DNA of 64,000 nt from Thereva unica. Taxonomy: Eukaryota > Arthropoda > Insecta > Diptera > Therevidae. The DNA is taken from the NCBI GenBank assembly GCA_949987705.1, contig OX465282.1, positions 97,452,070 to 97,516,069 of the forward strand, read 5' to 3'. Made by a program: the position numbers and the translations under genes. Shown here piece after piece: positions 3,404 to 62,290 of the stretch. Position 1 is the stretch's first letter. Each line of letters opens with the position of its first letter. The notes below the pieces were generated by a model. That model had not been told where the DNA came from. It made no database searches and saw only the letters and a program-made list of their open reading frames with translations.

Positions 3404-4963
3404 ATGGTTAAGATTCTTACCCCTATTCTAAATTGGTTGCCAGTAATAAGACAAGCTTTGGCTACTCGCGCTTACTTCCTACTTTGGCTACTCCTACTTA
3501 CTTTCGTTTCTATGTCATTGTGGCCAGAAGTTTTATCTACTTCATTTCTACTTTTCATTTAGCAGAATTTACTTCAGATTGAGACTTATCGCACTTTTGT
3601 GATTGCGTTGGGACTTTTGACTGCTTTTAGAATACAGGGATGAACTCCGCCGAGTTATCTTTGTGACATTGCCTCTAGTACCGCAATTCGCTGAACCTCG
3701 CACAATCAACGAAGACGCGCATTATCTTATCCCGGATATCTGAACATGCCAGTCACAGCGGGGAGTACTCGAAACGATAGGAGCATTCGCTGTATCCTTC
3801 CATTTCCACTCAAGAGCTGCGTGAAGTCGTAATTCTCTTTCTCAGACTCCCTCGTAACCCACCCCCCACGTTTAGGATAAGTGTGTGACTCCACCGGCCC
3901 TAAAAAGACTCGCTCCACTATCCTTGTCAGTACTGACTCACCGTGTGTCATCTGCTGCCGCAATGTATTTGACTACCTTCTAACATATTCTGGATCATAG
4001 ATACGCATGCCTTCTTTCGCTAGTAGGTTATGGGAGCATCCGCGTTATCACGCACGCTGCATCGATACACGTGGTTGTGTAAGCGCAAAACGGGCTAAGG
4101 GCGTTTAGTCTGCATGCGGCCGTCCATTTTCTACTGTTAGCTAGCTGTCCTGTTCAATGCTATTGCTAACAATGCCGCTGCGTATAGCAGGAGTTAGCTC
4201 ATCATCTTCGACATCAGGTAGCGACGACTCGGTCTACAGCCGCCCACGTTAGGCAGCACTCTTGAGTGTGCTTTTAAAATTAGACTGCGGGCGGGTTGTA
4301 ACTGAATGATCTGATTGAATACCTTGATCCTTGCGGACACTAGTTTTCTCCGTTATCACAACTTCAGTTTTCTGCTCAGCAAGCGTTAGACAATCGCTTT
4401 CAGGCCACACTTTAATATCTCAGATCATTGTAGAGCCCATAATTCTATCGGGGATGTCGTCTTACGAGCACTGCTCCATGTCATACGCGATCTCGATTGT
4501 AACTGTTCTTTTTAGAAGGCGTAACCCCAACACATCATTATCTTTGTGGTACCTAGGAGACAGGACAGATTTTTGGAGAACTCCGCATTTTGTTCTGCAC
4601 ACCGTTAGCCCATCTTCTTCACAAGGAAGTGGCCTACCTACTTTCATTTTTAGGTAAAATACTAACCTACAGTGCGAGTTTATTGGGAAAACGGCATAAG
4701 AATTTGTAAAAAGAAATAAATAAAATTAGTTTATTTGTGTTGTGGTTTTCGGATGTTAATTGTCTAAGGAATATACAATCAACAGAATTTTTGTTTACCT
4801 TTTCTCTGCTTCCATTTTGCTAAAGATAGAACTGTCGATACCTACAAACGTTCGAGAAAATTGTCACTTGACACTTCCACCTAGTGACAATTAGAATTAG
4901 ACAATTAGACGTTTGTCGATCTAGTCGCCACGTGTCACTTAGTTTGACAATGAGAATTCCAAT
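3404..4963. other. GC-richer block of unknown origin
   Basis: From about 3600 to 4650 base composition is markedly less AT-rich than its surroundings. Minus-strand frames such as 3963-3727 have protein-like composition but no motif I can name, and all are broken by stops. A decayed LTR retrotransposon or another old insertion is possible. Confidence 0.3.
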
Positions 4964-5119
4964 TGACGGTGATTACACTGTTCGTTCCTACGTACGTTCC
5001 TCACGAGCTTTTAGATGAACGGGGAAGTGGGGATGAAGCCCCTCATCATCTCCACTTCCCCGTTCATCTAAAAAGCTCGTGAGGAACGTACGTAGGAACG
5101 AACAGTCTAATCACCGTCA
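4964..5119. repeat. Near-perfect hairpin (foldback element)
   Basis: Left arm from TGACGGTGATTA at 4964 and right arm ending TAATCACCGTCA at 5119 are reverse complements over roughly 70 bp, with a spacer of about 14 bp. The arms include the palindromic word CCTACGTACGTTCC. Weaker outer complementarity may extend the element to roughly 4840-5170. Transcribed, it would fold into a long hairpin. Confidence 0.85.
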
Positions 5120-5208
5120 TTGAGAGTCGAACTGACATTTGTCACGGCACTCGACAACGAGGATAAGGCTGTATGTCTATATGTATATGATAAATGGGTT
5201 CAGTCTAA

Positions 5209-5482
5209 TTAACATAATATCTGAAAGAACTTTGTAAAAGCTGTGCTCAACATCGTGATTGGTCTGTAGTTTTTGCGGTTTATCAATTCATCCTTTTTGT
5301 CGACTGGGACAATTGCGCCTAGAAGGTATCTTTCTGCTTCTCCATAGTTTGCAAATGAGACTATGTAAGGTATAGCATAGTTTGTCTCCATCATATTTAA
5401 AAATTTCTATGGATATACCATCTTGGCCTGGAGGTTCATGATTTTTTAGTTTCCCTATGGCAGTAGTCAGTATGCGTGCCAA
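5209..5482 (-). pseudogene. RTE-like reverse transcriptase fragment
   Basis: Minus-strand frames contain 'IGKLKNHEPPGQDGI' (the 'K-N-KAPG-DGI' block before the RT fingers), then 'LICKLWRS' and, after a frameshift, 'KNYRPITMLS' (the 'NYRGI-LLS' RT motif). The two halves are in different frames, and nothing further of the element is present. Confidence 0.75.
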
Positions 5483-5539
5483 AACAAATACATTCTATTT
5501 TTATAAAAACGACGTTGCAAACAATAATAAATAATATTA

Positions 5540-6130
5540 AAATGTTGAATAATGGTGCAACGGTGTGTTTTGTGAATAAGATGAGATTTAAATGAGGAAG
5601 GAATACCTTATTATACGGAATACGATGACTATAGATTTGTGGAGTGTGTAGATTTGTGAAGGTTTTGTCCAGAAATTCGTTGCCAATGATAGCCTTGCGA
5701 GATGGAGCGTTATCGTGGTGCAAAAGCCATGCGTGTTCTTTCCACAAATCTGGTCTTTTTCGACGAATTTGCTCTCTCAAACGCCGCATAACGTTCAGAT
5801 AATATTCCTTATTTACTGTCTCGCCGTCTGGCAAGAATCCTGAGTGCACAACAACGCGGTCAACGCTATCTATATCACCTTTACTTTTGCTCAACTTGGA
5901 AGTGATTTCTTCGGTTTCGGCACAGTCATTCTGATGCTTATTGGTTCGTTTGCATGTCAAACTCGGCAGCTCATGTCTCATCACCAGTTACAATGCACTT
6001 TGTGAATGTGGGTTCGGAATTTACGAGTTCTAACATTTGTGACCGCGATTAAGTTATTGTAGAAAATTCAGGTCTTTCAGCACTAGTCGAGCGGCAACAC
6101 GGCAATTGTTCGTGCGACAGAAACGTCAGC
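5540..6130 (-). pseudogene. mariner-family transposase remnant
   Basis: Read on the minus strand from about 6030, the frame gives the first catalytic block 'CIVTGDET' and 'EFDMQT'; the usual Trp after TGDET is a TGA stop near 5980. It continues with 'HSGFLPDGETVNKEYYLNV', then 'LREQIRRKRPDLWKEHAWLL' and 'HHDNAPSRKA' with the second catalytic Asp. These are hallmarks of D,D34D mariner transposases, which cut and paste the element at TA. After the second block the frame decays, and the third Asp and the ends are not recognisable. It is a non-functional copy. Confidence 0.9.
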
Positions 6131-20797: not shown

Positions 20798-21435
20798 AAG
20801 TTCGACAGAAAATGAAATCGGACCGGACGCTGTATCAGACAATCCAGCGGTTAGGCGACAAAACAACATCAAAAAATCGGATGAAATTTTCGAGATTCCC
20901 CATGAGCGCCTGCAGCGGGGGAGAGAATTCTTCCACAAGCTGAACAACCATTACGCCACAATCCAGCACCGGAACCGCCGATTATCGAATAACCGACGAA
21001 TCAGTTTCTCGATACCGAACCGACAATTATCGAGGTAAAGACGGCAATAAAATCGCTGAAAAATGGAAAAGCGCCGGGAATAGACCAATTAACCGCCGAG
21101 ATGATCAAAGCCGGAGGTGATGTCTTATCACAAGGAATTCATGTCCTCATAACACACATATGGCATTCGGATCGTGTTCCGTCGGCGTGAAAGAAAGCGC
21201 TCGTCCCAATTTTGAAGAAGGGCGACAGTCGGGAATGCAAGAACTATCGCGGTATTAATCTCTTATGGATCTGAAACGTGGACACTACTTAAACCGGACG
21301 TTAAGAAGCTCGAGGTCTTCCAAATGCGATGCTTGTGGCAGATCCTCGGTGTCACAAAAACTTCTCTGGCGAGACCGTATCCGTTGCGCGGACATCCCGC
21401 TCGGACCGCCAGCTAAAGGGTGAAAGAAGAAGAAG
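20798..21435 (+). mobile_element. RTE family C, internally deleted copy
   Basis: Starts in the linker ('VRQKMKSDR'), continues through 'LGDKTTSKNRM' and 'AIKSLKNGKAPGIDQLTAEM', 'KKGDSRECKNYRGINL', and then jumps to the C-terminal block 'YGSETWTLLKPDVKKLEVFQ'. It ends at the family's typical AAAGGGTGAAAGAAGAAGAA tail. The jump at about 21250 removes the whole RT palm. Related copies are at 26497 and 36435. Confidence 0.8.
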
Positions 21436-22035
21436 AATGTTCAAATAGCAGTTTTGGAAAAAGTTAGGCGCAACCAAGTAATGGAATATGTCAAACAAAC
21501 AATACAATCTCTTATCCAAATGGCAGTCCGGTTTTCGACCAAATTATAGTTGTGAGACAGCCATATTAAAAGTTTGTATGGCATCCATGAGTCGCTCGAT
21601 AAGGACCACTTAACTGTATTAGTTCTACTTGACTTTAGCAAAGCCTCGTGGGCAAATGATGCCAAAATGACGTAAACAGATTATGTTTCAGATGTGCATA
21701 GCTGTGATTGCTCTTTCTTGGTCACGTCATTTTGTCCGCGAACAAATGTTCAATTACCTTGGTGGATACCTACCTTTTGACTCGGTAAGTCACCACAAAC
21801 TGCTTAGTAAGCTTAATAAGAATGTTAACTTTTCATTTTCGGCTGTGAAGCTGATAAGTATTTTCTGACTGGCAGATCCCAAGTTGTTAAAGTTGGAAAT
21901 GACTACTCGTCCGCTGCGTCTCTTTATTTAGGTGTGCTTCATGGCTCAATTCTTCGTCCACTTTTATTCAGCCTATACATGAATGACCCACCAAAAGTAG
22001 TACGAAATTGTGCTATCCACTTTCATATATATAAC
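21436..22035 (+). pseudogene. CR1/Jockey-like RT, upstream half (split by P element)
   Basis: Plus-strand frames encode RT palm motifs: 'HESLDKDHLTVLVLLDFSKA', 'HHKLLSKLNKN', 'GRSQVVKVGNDYSS' and 'HGSILRPLLFSLYMNDPPKV', then 'VRNCAIHFHIYN'. At 22035 the frame is cut by the P-superfamily element. A small insertion of about 125 bp (about 21650-21775), with partly inverted ends containing CAAAATGACGT and ACGTCATTTTG, separates 'DFSKA' from 'FDSVSHHKL'. The reading continues at 26274. Confidence 0.8.
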
Positions 22036-22990
22036 CACAGACAATATAACTATACCCAGATATGCCACGCCGAACAAAATTTTGTCCTAAGGAGATTTTC
22101 AAGTGGATTTACTAATTTTCCAGATCAGAAAGCTCGGCATAAGACTGCGCTGAGCTTCTCGCGTCTGGAGAAGCGATTCTCAAAAAGCTTTGAAGTTATC
22201 TCCAAGCATCTGCGGTCGCCTGCGCAATTTGAGAATAAAAAAGGGCTTGAGTGCACTGCACACACAAAAAAGCATATAAATAAGCATACACAATAAGAAG
22301 AATGAATCACCAAAACGGGCATTTAAAAGAATTTGCAGTTTTTGTGGCAGAACATCAGATTAGTGATTTATAATTTTTTTTATTAGAGACAGACAAATGA
22401 ACAGATTTAAAGGTGTTGAAACGAAAATAAATAGAGAACAATAATTTAATATCGTGATGGATGGAATAATTCGGACAGTTAAAAAGACGAAAATTGAATT
22501 GAAATCTTCTAAAGCCGGCAACAAATGCTGCTTACCACATTGCGGGCGATCTAGAAGGGAATTTCCTGAAACAAGGATTTTCAAATTTAAAAAATTTGCA
22601 GTTTTTGTCGAAATCCGTAACCTGCTCAGTTCCAAATAAACATGCCGGCCGTGACCATGAGCCTATATACATATGTATTTCAAATTCCTCAATTTATGAT
22701 TTTTCAGGTCGGGCTGCGCTAATAATAATGAAATGTAGGGATAAGTTATGTTCTGGATTTATCAAATTTTCAGAATAAAAGTAATTTTCTTGTTCGAATA
22801 ATATTTATTTTTTCATTAATGCATTTTTCTACATCTTACAAGCTATTGTTTATTCATGTGTGAGCCAACGTATTTAATTTACTGTTATGTATTTGTCCTT
22901 TTTTTCTTATTAACTATCCACGCGCAATGCTTACGAATTAAAACTTTTATCAGGAAAATTAATATTGCTTTTCTATGTAGAAAACAAGGA
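22036..22990 (+). repeat. Left long inverted arm of the P-superfamily element
   Basis: Inverted copy of 25319-26273. It includes a duplicate of the THAP-encoding first exon on the plus strand ('NKCCLPHCGRSRREF', about 22510-22560), so this arm has coding-looking sequence facing the centre. Confidence 0.9.
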
Positions 22991-23063
22991 GGCTCTTCTT
23001 GAAACCAGAATTTATATTCACTATCATTTGTGCAAGATATGCTTTGTTCAATTATGCAATGTT

Positions 23064-25852
23064 TTATTTTCCGTATTTCTTTGTTATTAGTGAATTTTTT
23101 TTTCGAATACTCGATATGTATCTTGCATATTTTGAAAAATAAATCAGAATGTGAACATAAGCCTCCAAAGTCACTACCTGACGTTTTATAATTTTTTTTA
23201 GTATAAACATTTCAGAAGGAAAGGATATAATTTCATCTTGTTTAATTATGACTTCTCTGCAATTTTCACACGTGATACGGTGGGCAATGTAGCCACAAAA
23301 ATATCGTGTTGACGTTATTTCGATATTATCAATATTCTCGGAATTAAAATCATCAGCCCCTTGATCAAAATAATGTTCGTTTTCTGCATATACTTCATTA
23401 TAAGTAAAATTAAGAAGATTAGTATTTTGAACTTCTATTGCACTTGAACTTTGAATTTCACTTAAAATTTCTCCCAAAGTGAACTGATAACATTTCGTTC
23501 TCATCTTCCATGCAATTACCTTTAGAGGTGAAATGCAGAAATTTCATTGATAGCATTTTTGCTACAATTACATATATTGAATTCGTAAACCGAAAGATTT
23601 TTACAATTGTCCCCTTTTGCCCTTACATAAGAAAATCCATTTTCCAAAGGATGCAACCAGGAGGTAAATATAAAAAATACTTCTCCCTGTGCGAAGATTT
23701 CATTTGCTAGAGAAAGAACTCCCCTCGTAGTTTGTATTAATCCATCAATACAATAAACCCTGTTTCCGGTGTACTTGATTTGTTGCAAATATATTATAAG
23801 CTCTTGCAATTTTTTCCAAACAATATTTTCTTTTTTTAATCAGCTTTTGAAAGAATTTGTATCTTTTAGTACTTGGCTGTTCAGGCAGTCAAATAGTTAT
23901 TAATTTTTGGAATAAATTTTGCTGTTGACAAATTTTGCTTTTAAATTGTTTGTTTTCTGTAGCTGATAGAATAGCAGCTGCAACAATATGACTCAACACT
24001 TGCGCAGCTAGTTTAACTCTCTTTTTTTCGAAGGATGTGGGTTGAATGTGCAGTCATTTTGGTTGTCTTACCCTTTTCGTGATCATAAATTTCACGTACT
24101 ACATAAATATTTACTGTTCCATCAGGAGTTTCCAGATTACCTCTCAAAAGTATATTTCTAGTGGATTTAATTAAATGAGGAACATCATACTATAAATAAA
24201 TTTTTTTGCCATTATGATGGAAATATGGATTCTCCGGACTCGTTTTCAAAATATTATAAAATCCACGATTATTTGGTCCTTGGTCACAAGTTATGGCTTT
24301 AACATCAAGGCCAAGTAATCCAACTTGCTCCATAAGTTCTTTAACAATTCGTTCCAAATCATATGCTTTTATAGAGCTTGCTGAAACTACAGAATAAATT
24401 ATGAACTTCCAATTGGTAATTAGTCCTCTCAACATAAAGACACAGATGGCACTGCCAAGTGCATCTTCTCTTTTCAAAACCCAAGTCCACTAAACCGTCT
24501 ATAATTTCTACTGATGAATTGTAGGTCAAATTGTGTCTAATCGAAACTTCATCGAAGATTAAAATGCATTTTTTCCCAACATTGTTCATCTTTTTCACTG
24601 CATTTTGAAGAGCGTTCATGATTGTTTCCTGGTTGCAGATTTTTGGTTAAATTCCAGCGATTTAATGAGGAATTCAATTTGAGTAGATTCCTTAAAAATA
24701 AATACGCTGAAGTAGTAGATAATAAAAATTTTGTGCAAATATTTTTTCGCCGTCATTCCACGAAGTTATCGGCCTTCATCTTAAAATCATTTTACACAAA
24801 ACTTTTTCATTTTCGGTTAACTCCATCGAAGTCACATGATCCTCAATACTGAAATTTTTCTTAATTCTAACCTTATTCTTTAATCTAATCACAATTTTGT
24901 TTAATTTTGAATTTTGATTTTTTTAAAAATTAGGTATTTATTTTTCTATAATGGTTAATAGCTTCCGACAGTTTGGAACACTTTTTGGAATGAAATTGCA
25001 CATTCTTTAAATTTTTTGTACATGAACTACACAGTCAAGGAGGAGATTCGGATCTCTTCCGTTTATGACCAGGAGATCGAAGCAAAGTTAACGGTATTTC
25101 GCGTTCTTCACTATCGAGCAAGGACCTAGAATCATCTGACTCCAAATATCCTCCTAAATTCAAATTCGGCATAGCACGTCTTTTTAAAAACCTTTTAAGT
25201 CTAAAGAAAAATGTTTCTCACATAAAAACAATGATGACGACCTTGCAATAATTTCCTCAGACAAATTACCCTTATCTACCCACAGTTTGAAAAGAGGACT
25301 GTCAAATCCCGGAAAGAATCCTTGTTTTCTACATAGAAAAGCAATATTAATTTTCCTGATAAAAGTTTTAATTCGTAAGCATTGCGCGTGGATAGTTAAT
25401 AAGAAAAAAAGGACAAATACATAACAGTAAATTAAATACGTTGGCTCACACATGAATAAACAATAGCTTGTAAGATGTAGAAAAATGCATTAATGAAAAA
25501 ATAAATATTATTCGAACAAGAAAATTACTTTTATTCTGAAAATTTGATAAATCCAGAACATAACTTATCCCTACATTTCATTATTATTAGCGCAGCCCGA
25601 CCTGAAAAATCATAAATTGAGGAATTTGAAATACATATGTATATAGGCTCATGGTCACGGCCGGCATGTTTATTTGGAACTGAGCAGGTTACGGATTTCG
25701 ACAAAAACTGCAAATTTTTTAAATTTGAAAATCCTTGTTTCGGGAAATTCCCTTCTAGATCGCCCGCAATGTGGTAAGCAGCATTTGTTGCCGGCTTTAG
25801 AAGATTTCAATTCAATTTTCGTCTTTTTAACTGTCCGAATTATTCCATCCAT
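23064..25852 (-). pseudogene. P-element-type transposase, broken
   Basis: Minus strand, in order. THAP finger part 1 is at about 25850-25670 ('CCLPHCGRSRREF', 'FKFKK'). Part 2 is at about 25320-25184 ('LFKLWVDKG', 'ARSSSLFLCEKHFSLD'), with an intron or frame change between. A basic/Leu-rich linker follows, then 'KCILIFDEVSIRHNLTYN', 'LITNWKFIIYSV', 'VGLLGLDVKAITCDQGPNNR' and 'ENPYFHHNGKKIY' at 24620-24190. Next come 'QTTRGVLSLANEIF' and 'FIFTSWLHPLENGFSYVRAK' at 23809-23522, and 'CGYIAHRITCENC' at 23504-23064. These follow the RNase H-like and C-terminal blocks of P/THAP9 transposases. Stops and frame changes occur at about 24190-24480 and 23520, so the copy is probably inactive, though real introns may explain some breaks. 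Confidence 0.85.
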
Positions 25853-26273
25853 CACGATATTAAATTATTGTTCTCTATTTATTTTCGTTTCAACACCTTT
25901 AAATCTGTTCATTTGTCTGTCTCTAATAAAAAAAATTATAAATCACTAATCTGATGTTCTGCCACAAAAACTGCAAATTCTTTTAAATGCCCGTTTTGGT
26001 GATTCATTCTTCTTATTGTGTATGCTTATTTATATGCTTTTTTGTGTGTGCAGTGCACTCAAGCCCTTTTTTATTCTCAAATTGCGCAGGCGACGGCAGA
26101 TGCTTGGAGATAACTTCAAAGCTTTTTGAGAATCGCTTCTCCAGACGCGAGAAGCTCAGCGCAGTCTTATGCCGAGCTTTCTGATCTGGAAAATTAGTAA
26201 ATCCACTTGAAAATCTCCTTAGGACAAAATTTTGTTCGGCGTGGCATATCTGGGTATAGTTATATTGTCTGTG
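25319..26273 (-). repeat. Right long inverted arm of the P-superfamily element
   Basis: Carries the first, THAP-encoding exon of the transposase on the minus strand and presumably its promoter. It is almost identical to the left arm; noted differences are near 22208/26096 and 22565/25743. Confidence 0.9.
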
Positions 26274-26496
26274 ATATAACGATGATGTCCAATTGTCTCT
26301 CACTCGTCCGATTGGACTAATCGAGGACTGTCTGTATTGTGCGAATAAACGAAGACCTGCAATGTGTTCATGAACGGTCCAATGGTTTGTTGCTTAATTT
26401 ATTTAAAACAAACTGCTTAGCTATTTATAGAAACATCATAGACACAGGAGAATTATCACCTATGGTATTAAATAATGCCGTTATTGTCTCACCGAG
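26274..26496 (+). pseudogene. CR1/Jockey-like RT, downstream half
   Basis: Resumes the host ORF after the P insertion with 'DDVQLSLTRPIGLIEDCLY' and then, after a frame change, 'RINEDLQCVHERSNGLLLN' and 'KTNCLAIYRN', standard post-palm RT sequence. It ends abruptly at 26496, where an RTE family C fragment begins on the other strand. Confidence 0.8.
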
Positions 26497-27597
26497 GATC
26501 TGCCTCAAGCATCGCATTTAGAAGACCTCGAGCTTCTTAACGTCCAGTTTGAGCAGTGTCCACGTTTCAGATCCATAAAGAAGAATCGGAAGGATCAATG
26601 TTCGGTAAAGGCGTACTTTTGTTTTGATGGAAATATCTGTTCGTTTCTGTTGCCTGGACGATGCGACTATGAACGTCGGCCGTCGATGCTATTTTCGTTT
26701 CCTAAACCAATGATCCCAAATATTTGAACCTCGAAACCTGTTCAATTTGGGTTCCATCGAGGTGAACACTGGCCCTCGATTCGTCCGTGAGCGGTGGTCT
26801 GAGCGCTGGTCTTTTCTGCATTGATTTTTAACCCGTATGACTCCGTATCGGCGAAGACGGCGCTATCGTCGGCGAACATTTTGTCGGTTACGAAGTTGTT
26901 GTCGTATCCAACTCCGAGTCGTCCATCGAATGCTTCACGCATAATCGTGTCAATCACAACATTGAAGAGAAGTGGCGAAACGACGTCTCCCTGTCGGACA
27001 CCCGTTTGAATCGGGAACTCCTCGGAGAAGTCGCTTCGAATACGAATGCTGCTTTTATGATTTTTAATGGCACGTGTTCGGTTCCCAAAGCTCTCCACAA
27101 GCTGTTCCATTCGATGCAATCGAAAGCGGATTTGAAATCGATGAAAACGACGACAGTTCGTTTGCCACAACGAATTCTTTCTTCCATTAGCTGCCGGAGT
27201 GTGAATATTTGATCAATATATCCTCGATGTGGTCTAAATCCCGCTTGTTCTTTCCGGTTCGTTTGCTCTCGATGTTTCTGTAGCCTCGAATGTATGATTA
27301 TCGTAAATACTTTGCCGACGATCGAAAGAAGGCTAATACCGCGATGGTTCTTGCACTCCCAACTGTCGCCTTTCTTCAAAATTGGGACAACGATCGCTTT
27401 CTTCCACGCAGAAGGGACCTGATACGAATGCCATATGTGTGTTATGAGAAAATGAAATCGTTGTGATAAGACATCACCTCCGACTTTGATCATCTCAGCG
27501 GTTACTTGATCTATTCCCGGCGCTTTTCCATTTTTCAGCGATTTGATTGCCATCTTCACCTCGATAATTGTCGATTCGGTATCAAGAAACTGATTCG
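26497..27597 (-). mobile_element. RTE family C, RT domain fragment
   Basis: The minus strand from 27559 encodes 'MAIKSLKNGKAPGIDQVTAE', 'HRGISLLSIVGKV', 'EQAGFRPHRGYIDQIFTLRQ' and 'VVVFIDFKSAFDCIEWNSL'. A frame change follows, then 'FPIQTGVRQGDVVSPLLFNV' and 'KMFADDSAVFAD' (the catalytic A/F-ADD box), then 'YGLKINAEKT'. After about 26740 further frame changes lead to a C-terminal part ending near the 'LKKLEVF' region. Endonuclease and 3' tail are absent. It is a rearranged internal fragment. Confidence 0.85.
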
Positions 27598-27603
27598 TCG
27601 GCT

Positions 27604-27765
27604 GTCAATATTGTTGCTATAGTTTTTAACTGTGCACCGATCACTATTTCAAATAACATCATCTCCAGAGTAATTTGATTCCCATAATTTTACTCAAAAA
27701 CAGGAGATGATGTTATTTGAAATAATATTCAGTGCACAGTTAAAAATTATAGCAACAATATTGAC
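27604..27765. repeat. 162-bp hairpin element
   Basis: Two 63-bp arms (27604-27666 and 27703-27765) are inverted copies with a few mismatches: left GTCAATATTGTTGCTATAGT, right reverse complement GTCAATATTGTTGCTATAAT. The spacer is 36 bp. It sits about 480 bp downstream of the SRPK stop. Confidence 0.85.
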
Positions 27766-28248: not shown

Positions 28249-40111
<11,863 letters not shown>

Positions 40112-42805: not shown

Positions 42806-45800
42806 GAGTCAAATGGTAGCAACGGCCTCAGGGACCTTTGATGGTGCCGGTACGTCAAAGAGATAAATCCTGGGTAACGCCACCTGCGATCTAAGGTCTT
42901 CACGATCTAAGATTTTCCGATATGCTACCGAATCCTACCTCAACCTCCACGAAGATGTAGATTTTACATCGGGTGTCCCCTGGATGCTCTTATCTACACA
43001 AGAGTAACAGACTGAGGAGGGTGAAAGGCGAGTGTTTCGCGCCTCAAAACGAAGCAAATACCGGACTGGTCCTCCAGGTTGGGGGTTGGGCGGCAGGCTG
43101 ACAACCTTCCACCGTAAGGGCAGGCCTCGGACAGGACGGACTCAACGGCAACGACTCAGGCAACGGAACATGGAATTCGATTTTGGAACATGGAACGTCA
43201 GGACGCTCAACAGAACGGGCGCTCTGCGTTCGCTTTTATTACTTCTCAAAAAATATAACATAAAGATCACAGCCCTTCAAGAAACAAAATGGACCCACAG
43301 TGGTATAATGGATCTAAAAACCCACACGGTACTCTCCACTCCAGCGGATCATCAAATGGAAGAAGAGAGTTCGGAGTAGCATTCATCATAGAGAAGGAAA
43401 TGAAATCTCTGATTCTGGACTTCAAACCAGTCAGCAATAGAATATGCACACTTCGAATTAAAACAAGGCTACATAACATTAGTCTTATAAACGTCCACGC
43501 GCCCACAGAAGAGAAAACGGATGAGGAGAAAGAGGAATTCTACCAGGAGCTAACAAACACCATTAGGTTAATACCGTCAAACGATATTAAAATGGTGCTT
43601 GGAGATATGAATGCCAAAGTAGGAAAAGAAGAGGAGTTCCTAGGAGTCATAGGAAAGCATAGCCTACACAACGTTACCAATGACAATGGTAGTCGATTGA
43701 TCGATTTCGCAAGCTCAAACGCAATGGTAGTAAGCTCAATAGTGTTCCCGCACAAAGATATACATAAGATGACGTGGCAGTCACCAGACGGAGTAACTAA
43801 TAATCAAATTGACCACGTCCTAATTGAAAGAAGAGGGGCCACGAGTATACTGGACGTAAGAACAATGAGAGGAGCGTGCTGTGGCTCGGACCACTATTTA
43901 GTCAAAGTGAAATTGAGAACCCGGATAGCAACTAAAACGCATAGAGGGCAAACTCAACCAAAATACGATATAGATAAGCTAAAACGGGAAGAAATAAGAG
44001 ATGCCTACCAACATGCTGTCGTACAAAACTTGAGAGAGGTAGATGAGCAGCCCAACATCAACGAAAAGTGGGAACAGGTCAAAAGCAGCATAAAGGGGGC
44101 AACAGAAGAGGCACTAGGCTGGGCCCCCAGACAGACTAGAATCGATTGGTTTGACCAAAACTGTAGAGCCGCAATTGAAGAAAGAAACCAGAGCCACCGA
44201 GAGTACATAGCAAGGCCAACAAGAGCAAGGATGGAAGTCTTCAAGGAAAAAAGAAAAATCGCAGACAAGCTGTGCAGAAAGAAGAAGAGGGAATATCTAA
44301 ATAGGAAAATCTTACAGATACAGGAAGACTTCAATGAAGGGAGAATTAGACAAGCGTACAAAGGAACTCGCCAGATCACCAATAAGTTTCAGCCAAGAAC
44401 GGACATCTGCAAGGACATAGATGGGAACTTGTTGGCAGATCCTGATAGGATAAAGGAAAGGTGCAGAGAGTATTTTCAGAACCTATTGAATCCTATCTCC
44501 ATATTAAACGAGAATGCAGAGACAGAGGCATTTGAAATTCCCCAAGATAACATCTCAATAGATCCACCAACACTGGATGAGGTGCGGGAAGCTGTAAAAA
44601 GACAGAGCAGCAACAAATCGCCTGGCGCCGATGGAATAGCAGCTGAGCTGCTAAAGGAAGGAGGACCCCAACTATTACGAACCTTACACGAACTCATATG
44701 CACCATCTGGGAGGAAGAAGTTATACCAGAGGACTGGAAGAAAGCGATTATATGTCCAATATACAAGAAAGGAGATAAATTAAACTGCAAAAACTAGAGA
44801 GGCATCTCACTCCTCAGCACCAGCTACAAAATCTTCACAATCCTTGTGAAACAAAAACTGGAACCTATAGCGGAAAGCCTTATAGGAGAATATCAAGCTG
44901 GTTTTAGTACAAACAGGTCAACATCGGACCAACTGCTGACCTTAAGGCAAATTCTGGAGAAAACCTGGGAAAGGAATGTAGATGTATACCAGATATTTGT
45001 CGACTTTCAACAGGCATATGACTCAATAAACAGAGAGAGGCTATACGAGATCTTATCGGAAATAGGAGTCCCCTCAAAGTTGGTACAACTAATCAAATGC
45101 GCCACAAATAGCTCACTGGCGAAAGTAAGGATCCAAAATATTGTAACAGAGGAGTTCGAAGTACGTCAAGGGCTCAGACAAGGAGATGGGCTGGCCCCCA
45201 TGCTTTTCAACCTGGCCCTAGAATGGGTGATAAGGAAAACGTCAGTCCAGCGAAGTGCATCAATAGCTACCCAGTCGGTACAATTACTTGGATATGCGGA
45301 TGACGTAAACATCGTGGGAAGGTCCTTTTTGGCAGCAAAAGAAGTCTATGTCGAATTAAAAGAGGCGGCAAAGGACATAGGCCTGAAGATTAACGAAGAA
45401 AAATCGAAGGTGATGCAACAATCCAGAGCAGGACGATTTAGAATGGGAAGAAATATAACCATCGACGAACATAACCTAGAAGTAGTCGATAAAACAGTCT
45501 ACCTTGGGTCTACTATCACAAAAAGAAACGAAGAAAAAGAAGAAATAACCAGACGAATACTATTGGCTAATAGAGCCTTTTATGCCCAAAAACAAATCCT
45601 GCACTCAAGATTTGTACACAGGAAAACGAAACTCTCACTCTACAAAACAGTAATACAACCAGTACTGTGTTATGGCAGCGAGACTTGGACTATGACCCAG
45701 GACATAGAGGAACGAGTCAACAGGTTTGAGAGGAAAATTCTCAGATGCATAATAGGCCCAATCAGAGAGGGTGGAATATGGCGAAGAAGATACAACAACG

Positions 45801-46105
45801 AGTTGTATGAAATTTTTGACGACCCACAACTCTCAACTTTAATAAAAATCAACAGACTGAGACTAGCCGGCCATGTGATCAGGATGGAGGACAATCGTAT
45901 CTCAAAACGGCTTATGGCATCAGAAATTTCGGGAAGTAGGCCAGTAGGTAGACCCAGGAGGAGATGGATAGACTCTGTGACGGCTGACGCAGAGTCAATG
46001 CTCAACATCCGGAACTGGAGACATGCTGCAAGGGACCGTCAAACATGAAATGGGAGAAATGCCCTAGAGGAGGCCAAGGCTCGATTTGGGCTGTAGCGCC
46101 ATTGG
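42806..46105 (+). mobile_element. RTE family B, near full-length element
   Basis: About 3.3 kb: a 5' UTR of about 360 bp, a single long endonuclease-RT ORF, and a 3' end at 'GGGCTGTAGCGCCATTGG'. Single-ORF architecture with APE endonuclease and RT and a very short 3' end fits the RTE clade. It is preceded by a truncated copy and followed by two more fragments, all in the same orientation. Confidence 0.85.
43170..46048 (+). pseudogene. RTE family B endonuclease-reverse transcriptase, two lesions
   Basis: From ATG at 43170: 'MEFDFGTWNVRTLNRTGALR' and 'ITALQETKW' (APE endonuclease start). A one-base shift follows near 43335, then 'RLHNISLINVHAPTEE', 'DIKMVLGDMNAKVG' and 'CCGSDHYLVKVKLR' (the SDH catalytic box). 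The linker is followed by 'NKSPGADGIAAELLK' and a TAG at 44795-44797 where 'NYRGISLL' is expected. Still in the same frame come 'YQAGFSTNRSTSDQLLTLRQ', 'IFVDFQQAYDSI', 'VRQGLRQGDGLAPMLFNLAL', 'LLGYADDVNIVGRS' and 'SRPVGRPRRRWIDSV'. One nonsense codon and one frameshift separate this from an intact ORF of roughly 960 codons. The protein would nick DNA and prime reverse transcription at the target. Confidence 0.88.
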
Positions 46106-61849: not shown

Positions 61850-62290
61850 GCGAGCAATCTAGCGCCAAAGTTCGCACTGCACGTGCCTGAAATAACTGAT
61901 AGATAACGCCATTTTTTTGAATATCTCCTTAACGGTTGCTCATATGAAAATGTAGTAAACAGCAGAAATAGGCTTATTTGACACGATGAAACACGAAACA
62001 AAAGGTTTACTGGAAGCTTGCTCCGTTTGATGGGGAGAGGTGAGACAGGGCTTGAGGGAACACGTGCTCCTTCAGGCCCTCTCCCATCTCTCCCGTTCAA
62101 ACCGAGCAAGCTTTCAGGAAACTTTTTGTTTCGTGTTTCATTGTGTAAAATGGGCCATACGAGCATTAAAATATCTTTCAAATGGGCTATTGACCGAAAC
62201 TCTATGTCGTGTCATGTGCGCGACATAGCGGGTGAAAATTCAACCGCGAAAGTTACGACACTTCTCGACGAATAAGTCTCTTCCAGCCAG
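61850..62290. mobile_element. Foldback element with about 58-bp strong inner arms
   Basis: ACACGATGAAACACGAAACA at 61981 is mirrored by the reverse complement ending at 62146. The inner arms (61981-62040 and about 62089-62146) match well. Weaker complementarity continues outwards on both sides, so the element may span roughly 61850-62290. Non-coding. Confidence 0.7.

What the first reader, a model, noticed from the sequence alone, without database searches (positions are those of the whole stretch)
22036..26273. P-superfamily element with 955-bp, near-identical inverted arms
Classical P elements have short (tens of bp) terminal repeats. Here each arm is 955 bp and I could find only about two differences between them, so they were either made recently or are kept alike by gene conversion. 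The core codes for THAP plus P-type transposase. This may be an uncommon long-TIR lineage of the superfamily.
Basis: partly seen in the sequence, partly recalled or inferred. Interest (0 to 1): 0.8.

Follow-up and report, generated by a model that had tools for sequence, protein, structure and literature searches.

The report
Broken P transposon with long arms
A dead jumping gene of the P-element group in a fly-like genome carries two almost identical 955-base mirror-image arms, each patched together from both ends of its own transposase gene; fruit-fly Galileo elements show a similar habit, so this is a relative of a known kind rather than something new.

Summary
In detail: 22036-26273 has inverted arms of exactly 955 nt with two mismatches and no indel, ends CACAGACAATATAAC, and a perfect 7-bp target-site duplication ATATAAC; with one copy removed, a LINE reverse-transcriptase frame reads through the site. 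The minus strand is a P-superfamily transposase (Pfam RNase-H domain 4e-11; 48 homologues, best 1e-134) but broken: 10-11 frameshifts and at least 4 stops in the unique core. The arms are chimeras: each holds the first half of the THAP codons (native to the right end) and the transposase C-terminus (native to the left end). The inner junction carries AAACAAGGA, also found in the THAP codons. This reads as repeated copying of one arm onto the other with template switching. The arms are more alike than the core's decay allows (2 differences; about 59 expected, 12 at the lower bound), so they were made or levelled late. The closest described kind is Galileo of Drosophilidae: long arms, mostly 7-bp duplications, arms taking in transposase codons. 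The host looks dipteran, probably not a drosophilid. Other genomic copies could not be searched (tool did not complete). New member of a known kind.

The parts
22036..26273 (-). whole P-superfamily element, 4238 bp; transposase gene on the minus strand
22029..22035 (.). 7-bp target-site duplication, left copy (ATATAAC)
26274..26280 (.). 7-bp target-site duplication, right copy (ATATAAC)
22036..22990 (+). left (3') arm, 955 nt; begins CACAGACAATATAACTATACCCAG
25319..26273 (-). right (5') arm, 955 nt, inverted copy with 2 mismatches
22991..25318 (-). unique core, 2328 nt, decayed transposase (10-11 frameshifts, at least 4 stops)
25721..25852 (-). first half of the THAP codons (exon 1a, MDGIIRT...KCCLPHCGRSRREFPETRIFKF), native place, inside the right arm
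   Evidence: 70% identical to P0001 over 33 aa, E 5e-16
22457..22588 (+). inverted extra copy of exon 1a in the left arm
   Evidence: (arm identity)
25193..25315 (-). second half of the THAP codons (FPGFDSPLFKLW...LCEKHF), in the core
   Evidence: (PF05485 E 0.022, below cut-off)
24190..24619 (-). TNP-like RNase H N-terminal domain in two frames (shift near 24470)
   Evidence: PF21787, E 4e-11 and 4.3e-10
22885..22998 (-). transposase C-terminus (EEPPCFLHRKAILIFLIKVLIRKHCAWIVNKKKRTNT + stop), native place, running 106 nt into the left arm
   Evidence: E 3e-11 to P0004, 4e-10 to P0005
25319..25424 (+). inverted extra copy of the C-terminal codons in the right arm, lying between the two THAP halves
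22321..22345 (+). 25-bp subterminal motif, copy 1 (arm offset 286-310)
22585..22608 (+). 25-bp subterminal motif, copy 2, at junction J1 (arm offset 550-573)
25319..25327 (-). inner edge of the right arm, junction J2: AAACAAGGA, shared by the C-terminal copy and the THAP codons
21829..22035 (+). left part of the interrupted LINE reverse-transcriptase frame (Jockey-like by recall)
26281..26479 (+). right part of the interrupted LINE (outer limit approximate)

Best explanation
It is a dead, non-autonomous cut-and-paste transposon of the P superfamily, Galileo-like in build. Shown: long arms, 7-bp duplication, insertion into a LINE, broken transposase, arms made of sequence from both ends of the gene. 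Inferred: the ancestor had an uninterrupted gene and shorter ends. (1) While a gap or break at the 3' end was repaired, the 5' end (terminus, leader, first half of the THAP codons) was copied there in inverted orientation (junction J1, at a 25-bp subterminal motif). (2) Later the 5' arm was recopied from the longer 3' arm; the copy tract ran past the old arm into the 3' untranslated part and the last 34 codons, and returned into the THAP codons at the shared AAACAAGGA (J2). Step 2 split the THAP codons and alone would cripple the transposase unless the stretch is spliced out. The last arm-to-arm copying came after most of the core's decay. The element has probably moved only with transposase supplied in trans.
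For: Arms 2 differences, 0 indels in 955. RNase-H domain hits; 48 proteins at E<=0.001 among the 7,993 candidates scored, best 1.1e-134; P transposase 6p5a at E 8e-8, with aspartates aligned at chain positions 230 and 303. C-terminus reads in frame from core into left arm; THAP first half in right arm in gene orientation. J2 carries AAACAAGGA, also in the THAP codons; a common suffix of 9 or more had frequency 4e-5 among 200,000 random pairs. J1 sits on a 25-bp motif repeated at arm 286-310. If the arms had aged like the core, 59 differences are expected from the 3 stops in 706 codons (12.3 at the lower 95% bound, P of 2 or fewer 4e-4) or 91 from 5 stops in 756 codons (29.6, P 6e-11); 0 indels in 1,910 arm bases against 10 or 11 frameshifts in 2,328 core bases has P 0.0025 or 0.0014. 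Galileo papers give the same copying model and a 69-bp overlap of arm and transposase end.
Against: Only one copy was seen, so the order of steps and the ancestral state are inferred. The core sequence after J2 is about 5 nt shorter than the THAP copy in the arm, so the return was not clean or has since changed. The shared 9-mer was noticed after the fact. An intron covering most of the split stretch cannot be excluded: one search found 4 of 35 splice pairs tried (7 donors x 5 acceptors near the edges) that keep the frame open, each adding 12 or more residues. With only the 6 shifts counted against P0001 the indel test weakens to P 0.027. Short-read polishing could level the arms artificially.
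Confidence: 0.75

Rival explanations
1. A stable long-arm family: all copies, including active ones, have these 955-nt arms; the stretch between the THAP halves is an intron, and the arms are kept alike by continual gene conversion or by selection for extra THAP binding sites.
For: Galileo is described with arms of about 300 bp to 1.2 kb, though copies in D. mojavensis range from 18 to 1,250 bp, and with THAP binding sites repeated inside its arms; one splice pair (TCC|GTAACC ... AACAAG|GA) keeps the frame with 12 extra residues.
Against: Galileo is said to have no introns (passage); homologue P0001 reads straight through this point; no splice pair tried restores the contiguous THAP reading; the inner 106 nt of the split stretch are the inverse of the C-terminal codons, odd for an original intron.
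Confidence: 0.17
2. Assembly or polishing artefact: the real arms differ more or are shorter, and consensus building made them alike.
For: Identical repeats of 1 kb are hard for short reads; no reads were available.
Against: Two differences remain; each arm joins different inner sequence; both outer ends have the same 7-bp duplication and rejoin one LINE frame; a 151-residue kinase exon nearby aligns without gap or stop.
Confidence: 0.05
3. A simple one-step fold-back: one end was copied whole onto the other after the gene had died, with no successive conversions.
For: The arms are nearly identical while the core is decayed.
Against: One copied end would not hold both the native first THAP codons and the native C-terminus; at least two junctions (J1, J2) are needed.
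Confidence: 0.03

Closest known systems
Galileo (P superfamily, Drosophilidae)
   Same: Arms of about 0.3-1.2 kb, 98-100% alike within a copy; 7-bp duplications in most copies (three 8-bp cases in D. willistoni); THAP plus P-type transposase, broken in all copies sequenced by 2013; arms lengthened by recruiting neighbouring sequence, including the transposase 3' end (69-bp overlap in the nearly complete D. willistoni copy) (PMC3573991 passages, PMC4168063 passages and section 6, PMC3688188 abstract and two sections).
   Different: Host seems a non-drosophilid fly; duplication ATATAAC fits GTANTAC at only 4 of 6 fixed positions; arms contain codons of both gene ends; relation of the transposases could not be tested because no Galileo protein was at hand.
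1360 (Hoppel, ProtoP)
   Same: P superfamily; 7-bp duplication, motif GTTNAAC (PMC3276498 passages), which ATATAAC fits at 4 of 6 fixed positions.
   Different: P-superfamily members other than Galileo are given arms of 30-50 bp (PMC3688188).
P element of D. melanogaster, Anopheles P elements, zebrafish Pdre2
   Same: THAP plus RNase-H transposase (for P).
   Different: 8-bp duplications; arms of 27-31 bp in seven Anopheles subfamilies and 13 bp in Pdre2.
Foldback-type elements such as Tetris (D. virilis)
   Same: Long inverted arms.
   Different: Here P-type transposase remnants lie between the arms; comparison from passages of PMC4079207 only.

Membership tests
P superfamily | P-type RNase-H transposase | tested here: met
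   PF21787 above cut-off in two frames; 48 homologues; 6p5a E 8e-8
P superfamily | N-terminal THAP domain | tested here: met
   first half 70% identical over 33 aa to P0001, whose record carries PF05485; second half only a weak PF05485 hit, E 0.022, below cut-off; the domain is split in this copy
P superfamily | 7- or 8-bp target-site duplication | tested here: met
   ATATAAC on both sides
canonical P element | 8-bp duplication and arms of about 30 bp | tested here: not met
   7 bp and 955 bp; reference values
Galileo | arms of several hundred bp, nearly identical | tested here: met
   955 nt, 99.79%; reference
Galileo | 7-bp duplication of consensus GTANTAC | tested here: inconclusive
   length fits; ATATAAC fits 4 of the 6 fixed positions; one insertion only
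Galileo | conserved terminal 40 bp (17 fixed positions) | not tested
   the alignment is in a figure, which is not held
Galileo | transposase falls in the Galileo clade | not tested
1360 | short arms | tested here: not met
   955 nt; reference

The most novel reading that the evidence does not exclude
Long arms arose independently of Galileo in a separate P lineage of non-drosophilid flies, by successive template switches between the two ends of one element, and this arm growth itself cut the THAP codons. Arm conversion would then be a recurrent self-made route by which P-type transposons become non-autonomous fold-back elements.
Probability: 0.35. Interest if true: 0.45.

Novelty: new member of a known kind. 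Interest (0 to 1): 0.3.

Why it matters
It extends the long-arm, arm-copying habit of Galileo to what is probably a fly outside Drosophilidae, and its junctions let one read likely copying steps from a single copy. [quoted passage not shown] Otherwise it is an ordinary dead transposon.

Tried and rejected
Other copies: whole-window self-BLAST and a 17-nt end pattern with up to 3 mismatches found only the two ends. The 24-nt end has no exact match in viral contigs. Alignment A1 (13 of the 48 homologues) found no relative in genome contigs (32 stretches matched a pattern, 0 confirmed) or viral contigs (28 matched, 0 confirmed); these tools warn that records of the window's own genome may be left out, and the collections are prokaryotic and viral. 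A Pfam scan of the three minus frames with stops as X gave only the RNase-H domain, in two of three frames; a PDB search of one of those frames gave nothing.

Corrected while checking: one search set 4 stops against a 706-codon set that holds only 3 of them; one search recounts (3 in 706, or 5 in 756 with the coiled-coil piece). The expected number of arm differences falls from 79 to 59 and the lower bound from 21.6 to 12.3; the conclusion and the odds stay.

Rejected: that the element lies in an intron of the SR-protein kinase gene. The last coding piece found ends at 28258, so the element lies about 2 kb beyond it. Rejected: a simple copy of one end onto the other (see rivals). Not built: trees against Galileo or 1360, for want of their proteins. 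Identifying the host by an RTE-type protein failed: best hits only about 50% identical, from many phyla. Literature: seven searches; one search returned nothing and one search was too broad to tell anything; I saw no non-drosophilid long-arm P element in the rows listed, which is weak evidence of absence in an open-licence library.

Full report
What is there. The two arms 22036-22990 and 25319-26273 are 955 nt long and differ at two sites without any indel. They begin CACAGACAATATAACTATACCCAG. Outside them stands ATATAAC on both sides, a perfect 7-bp target-site duplication. When the flanks are joined with one copy removed, a LINE reverse-transcriptase frame runs through the site, 69 codons before and 30 after it (...VVRNCAIHFHIYNDDVQLSLTRP...); the LINE copy is itself degraded further on, and naming it Jockey-like is recall. 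The element is thus a true insertion with two real ends.

The gene. On the minus strand two frames match the Pfam P-type RNase-H domain PF21787 at 4e-11 and 4.3e-10, both above the curated cut-off. A piecewise read-through of 810 residues found 48 proteins at E<=0.001 among the 7,993 candidates that were scored, the best at 1.1e-134 with 47% identity over 59% of the query, and the D. melanogaster P transposase 6p5a at 8e-8, with aspartates aligned at chain positions 230 and 303; that these are catalytic is recall. A frameshift-tolerant alignment counts 6 shifts against P0001 (which covers only 25315-23904), 11 against P0005 (one of them, at 22902, inside the arm) and 11 against P0004. Stops at 25037, 24778, 24192 and 23842 are seen with every one of the three references that reaches them; further stops in weakly aligned stretches differ between references. 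The gene is dead.

The arms are chimeras. The first half of the THAP codons lies at 25852-25721 in the right arm, in gene orientation (70% identical to P0001 over 33 residues); the second half begins in the core at 25315. The C-terminus runs from the core into the left arm (22998-22885; E 3e-11 and 4e-10 to P0004 and P0005), 106 nt of it within the arm. Because the arms are mirror copies, each arm also holds the other end's codons in reverse. Thus the inner 106 of the 408 nt between the THAP halves (length) are the reverse of the C-terminal codons. At the inner junction AAACAAGGA is shared by the C-terminal copy and the THAP codons; common suffixes of 9 or more had frequency 4e-5 in 200,000 random pairs. 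The core side is about 5 nt shorter than the THAP copy in the arm. At the other junction a 25-bp motif from arm position 286-310 recurs at 550-573.

Timing. In the 706 codons of the pieces used, 4.55% of substitutions would give a stop; the 3 stops there imply about 66 substitutions, and arms ageing likewise would differ at about 59 sites, or 12.3 at the lower 95% bound of the stop count. Two were seen (P 3e-23 and 4e-4). With the coiled-coil piece added (756 codons, 5 stops) the figures are 91 and 29.6 (P 1e-36 and 6e-11) (which corrects). Zero indels between the arms against 10 or 11 frameshifts in the core has P 0.0025 or 0.0014; with only 6 shifts it would be 0.027. These tests assume equal neutral rates. 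The last levelling of the arms is therefore probably younger than most of the core's decay.

Mechanism. The simplest history has two copying events: the 5' end copied inverted onto the 3' end (J1), then the enlarged 3' end copied back over the 5' end, past the old arm into the C-terminal codons, with return at AAACAAGGA (J2). Marzo and others proposed this kind of arm copying for Galileo (PMC3573991, passages). The D. willistoni paper reports a 69-bp overlap of arm and transposase end and a copy with transposase segments in its arms (PMC4168063, section 6). Of 35 splice pairs tried none restores a contiguous THAP reading; four keep the frame open with 12 or more extra residues, so an intron is unlikely but not excluded.

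Host and place. Kinase exons between 39625 and 28258 on the minus strand match SRPK of flies. In a search with one exon (3,663 hits, best 120 listed) the best named hits are hoverflies (91%); Drosophila SRPK is at 86-89%. Over several exons, among the rows printed, hoverfly proteins give 86-87% (354-360 residues aligned) and drosophilids, house fly and other flies 81-86%. The host is probably a dipteran outside Drosophilidae; the species is not known, and the difference is small. The element lies about 2 kb beyond the last kinase coding piece.

Comparison. 7-bp duplications are typical of 1360 and Galileo, 8-bp of P (PMC3276498 passages; PMC4168063 passages). Anopheles P arms are 27-31 bp (PMC1562414 passages), zebrafish Pdre2 13 bp (PMC10983969 passages). 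Among the papers seen, Galileo is the only close match in build. Whether this element descends from the Galileo branch is untested; a quick tree of 49 rows pairs it with unnamed P0001 (SH-aLRT 99) within a set of 16 (100).

Limits. A single copy carries the whole argument.

Noticed in passing
window 28258-39625, minus strand: Coding pieces of an SR-protein kinase (SRPK79D-like), 86-87% identical to hoverfly SRPK over several exons; helps place the host among flies.
   Followed up: partly
window 20993-21361 and 26480-27601: Fragments of a second, RTE-like (by recall) reverse-transcriptase element in opposite orientations (86-92% alike) flank the LINE and the P element; more of it at 37630-38764.
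   Followed up: partly
window 27604-27765: 162-bp palindrome (63-nt arms, 92%, 36 nt between), MITE-like, next to the reverse-transcriptase fragment.
   Followed up: no
window 4960-5122 and 61976-62151: Two more short palindromes (91% and 84% self-complementary), possible MITEs.
   Followed up: no
window 43259-46048: Nearly intact reverse-transcriptase element: 512 and 416 codons in one frame, parted by a single stop.
   Followed up: no
window 5436-5987, minus strand: Mariner-like transposase fragment (HAWLLHHDNAPS; name by recall).
   Followed up: no
window 23639-23656, minus strand: Where homologues read NQDPVEN or HQDILEN the element reads LHPLEN: two residues, including an acidic one, are missing near the likely (by recall) catalytic glutamate.
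   Followed up: partly
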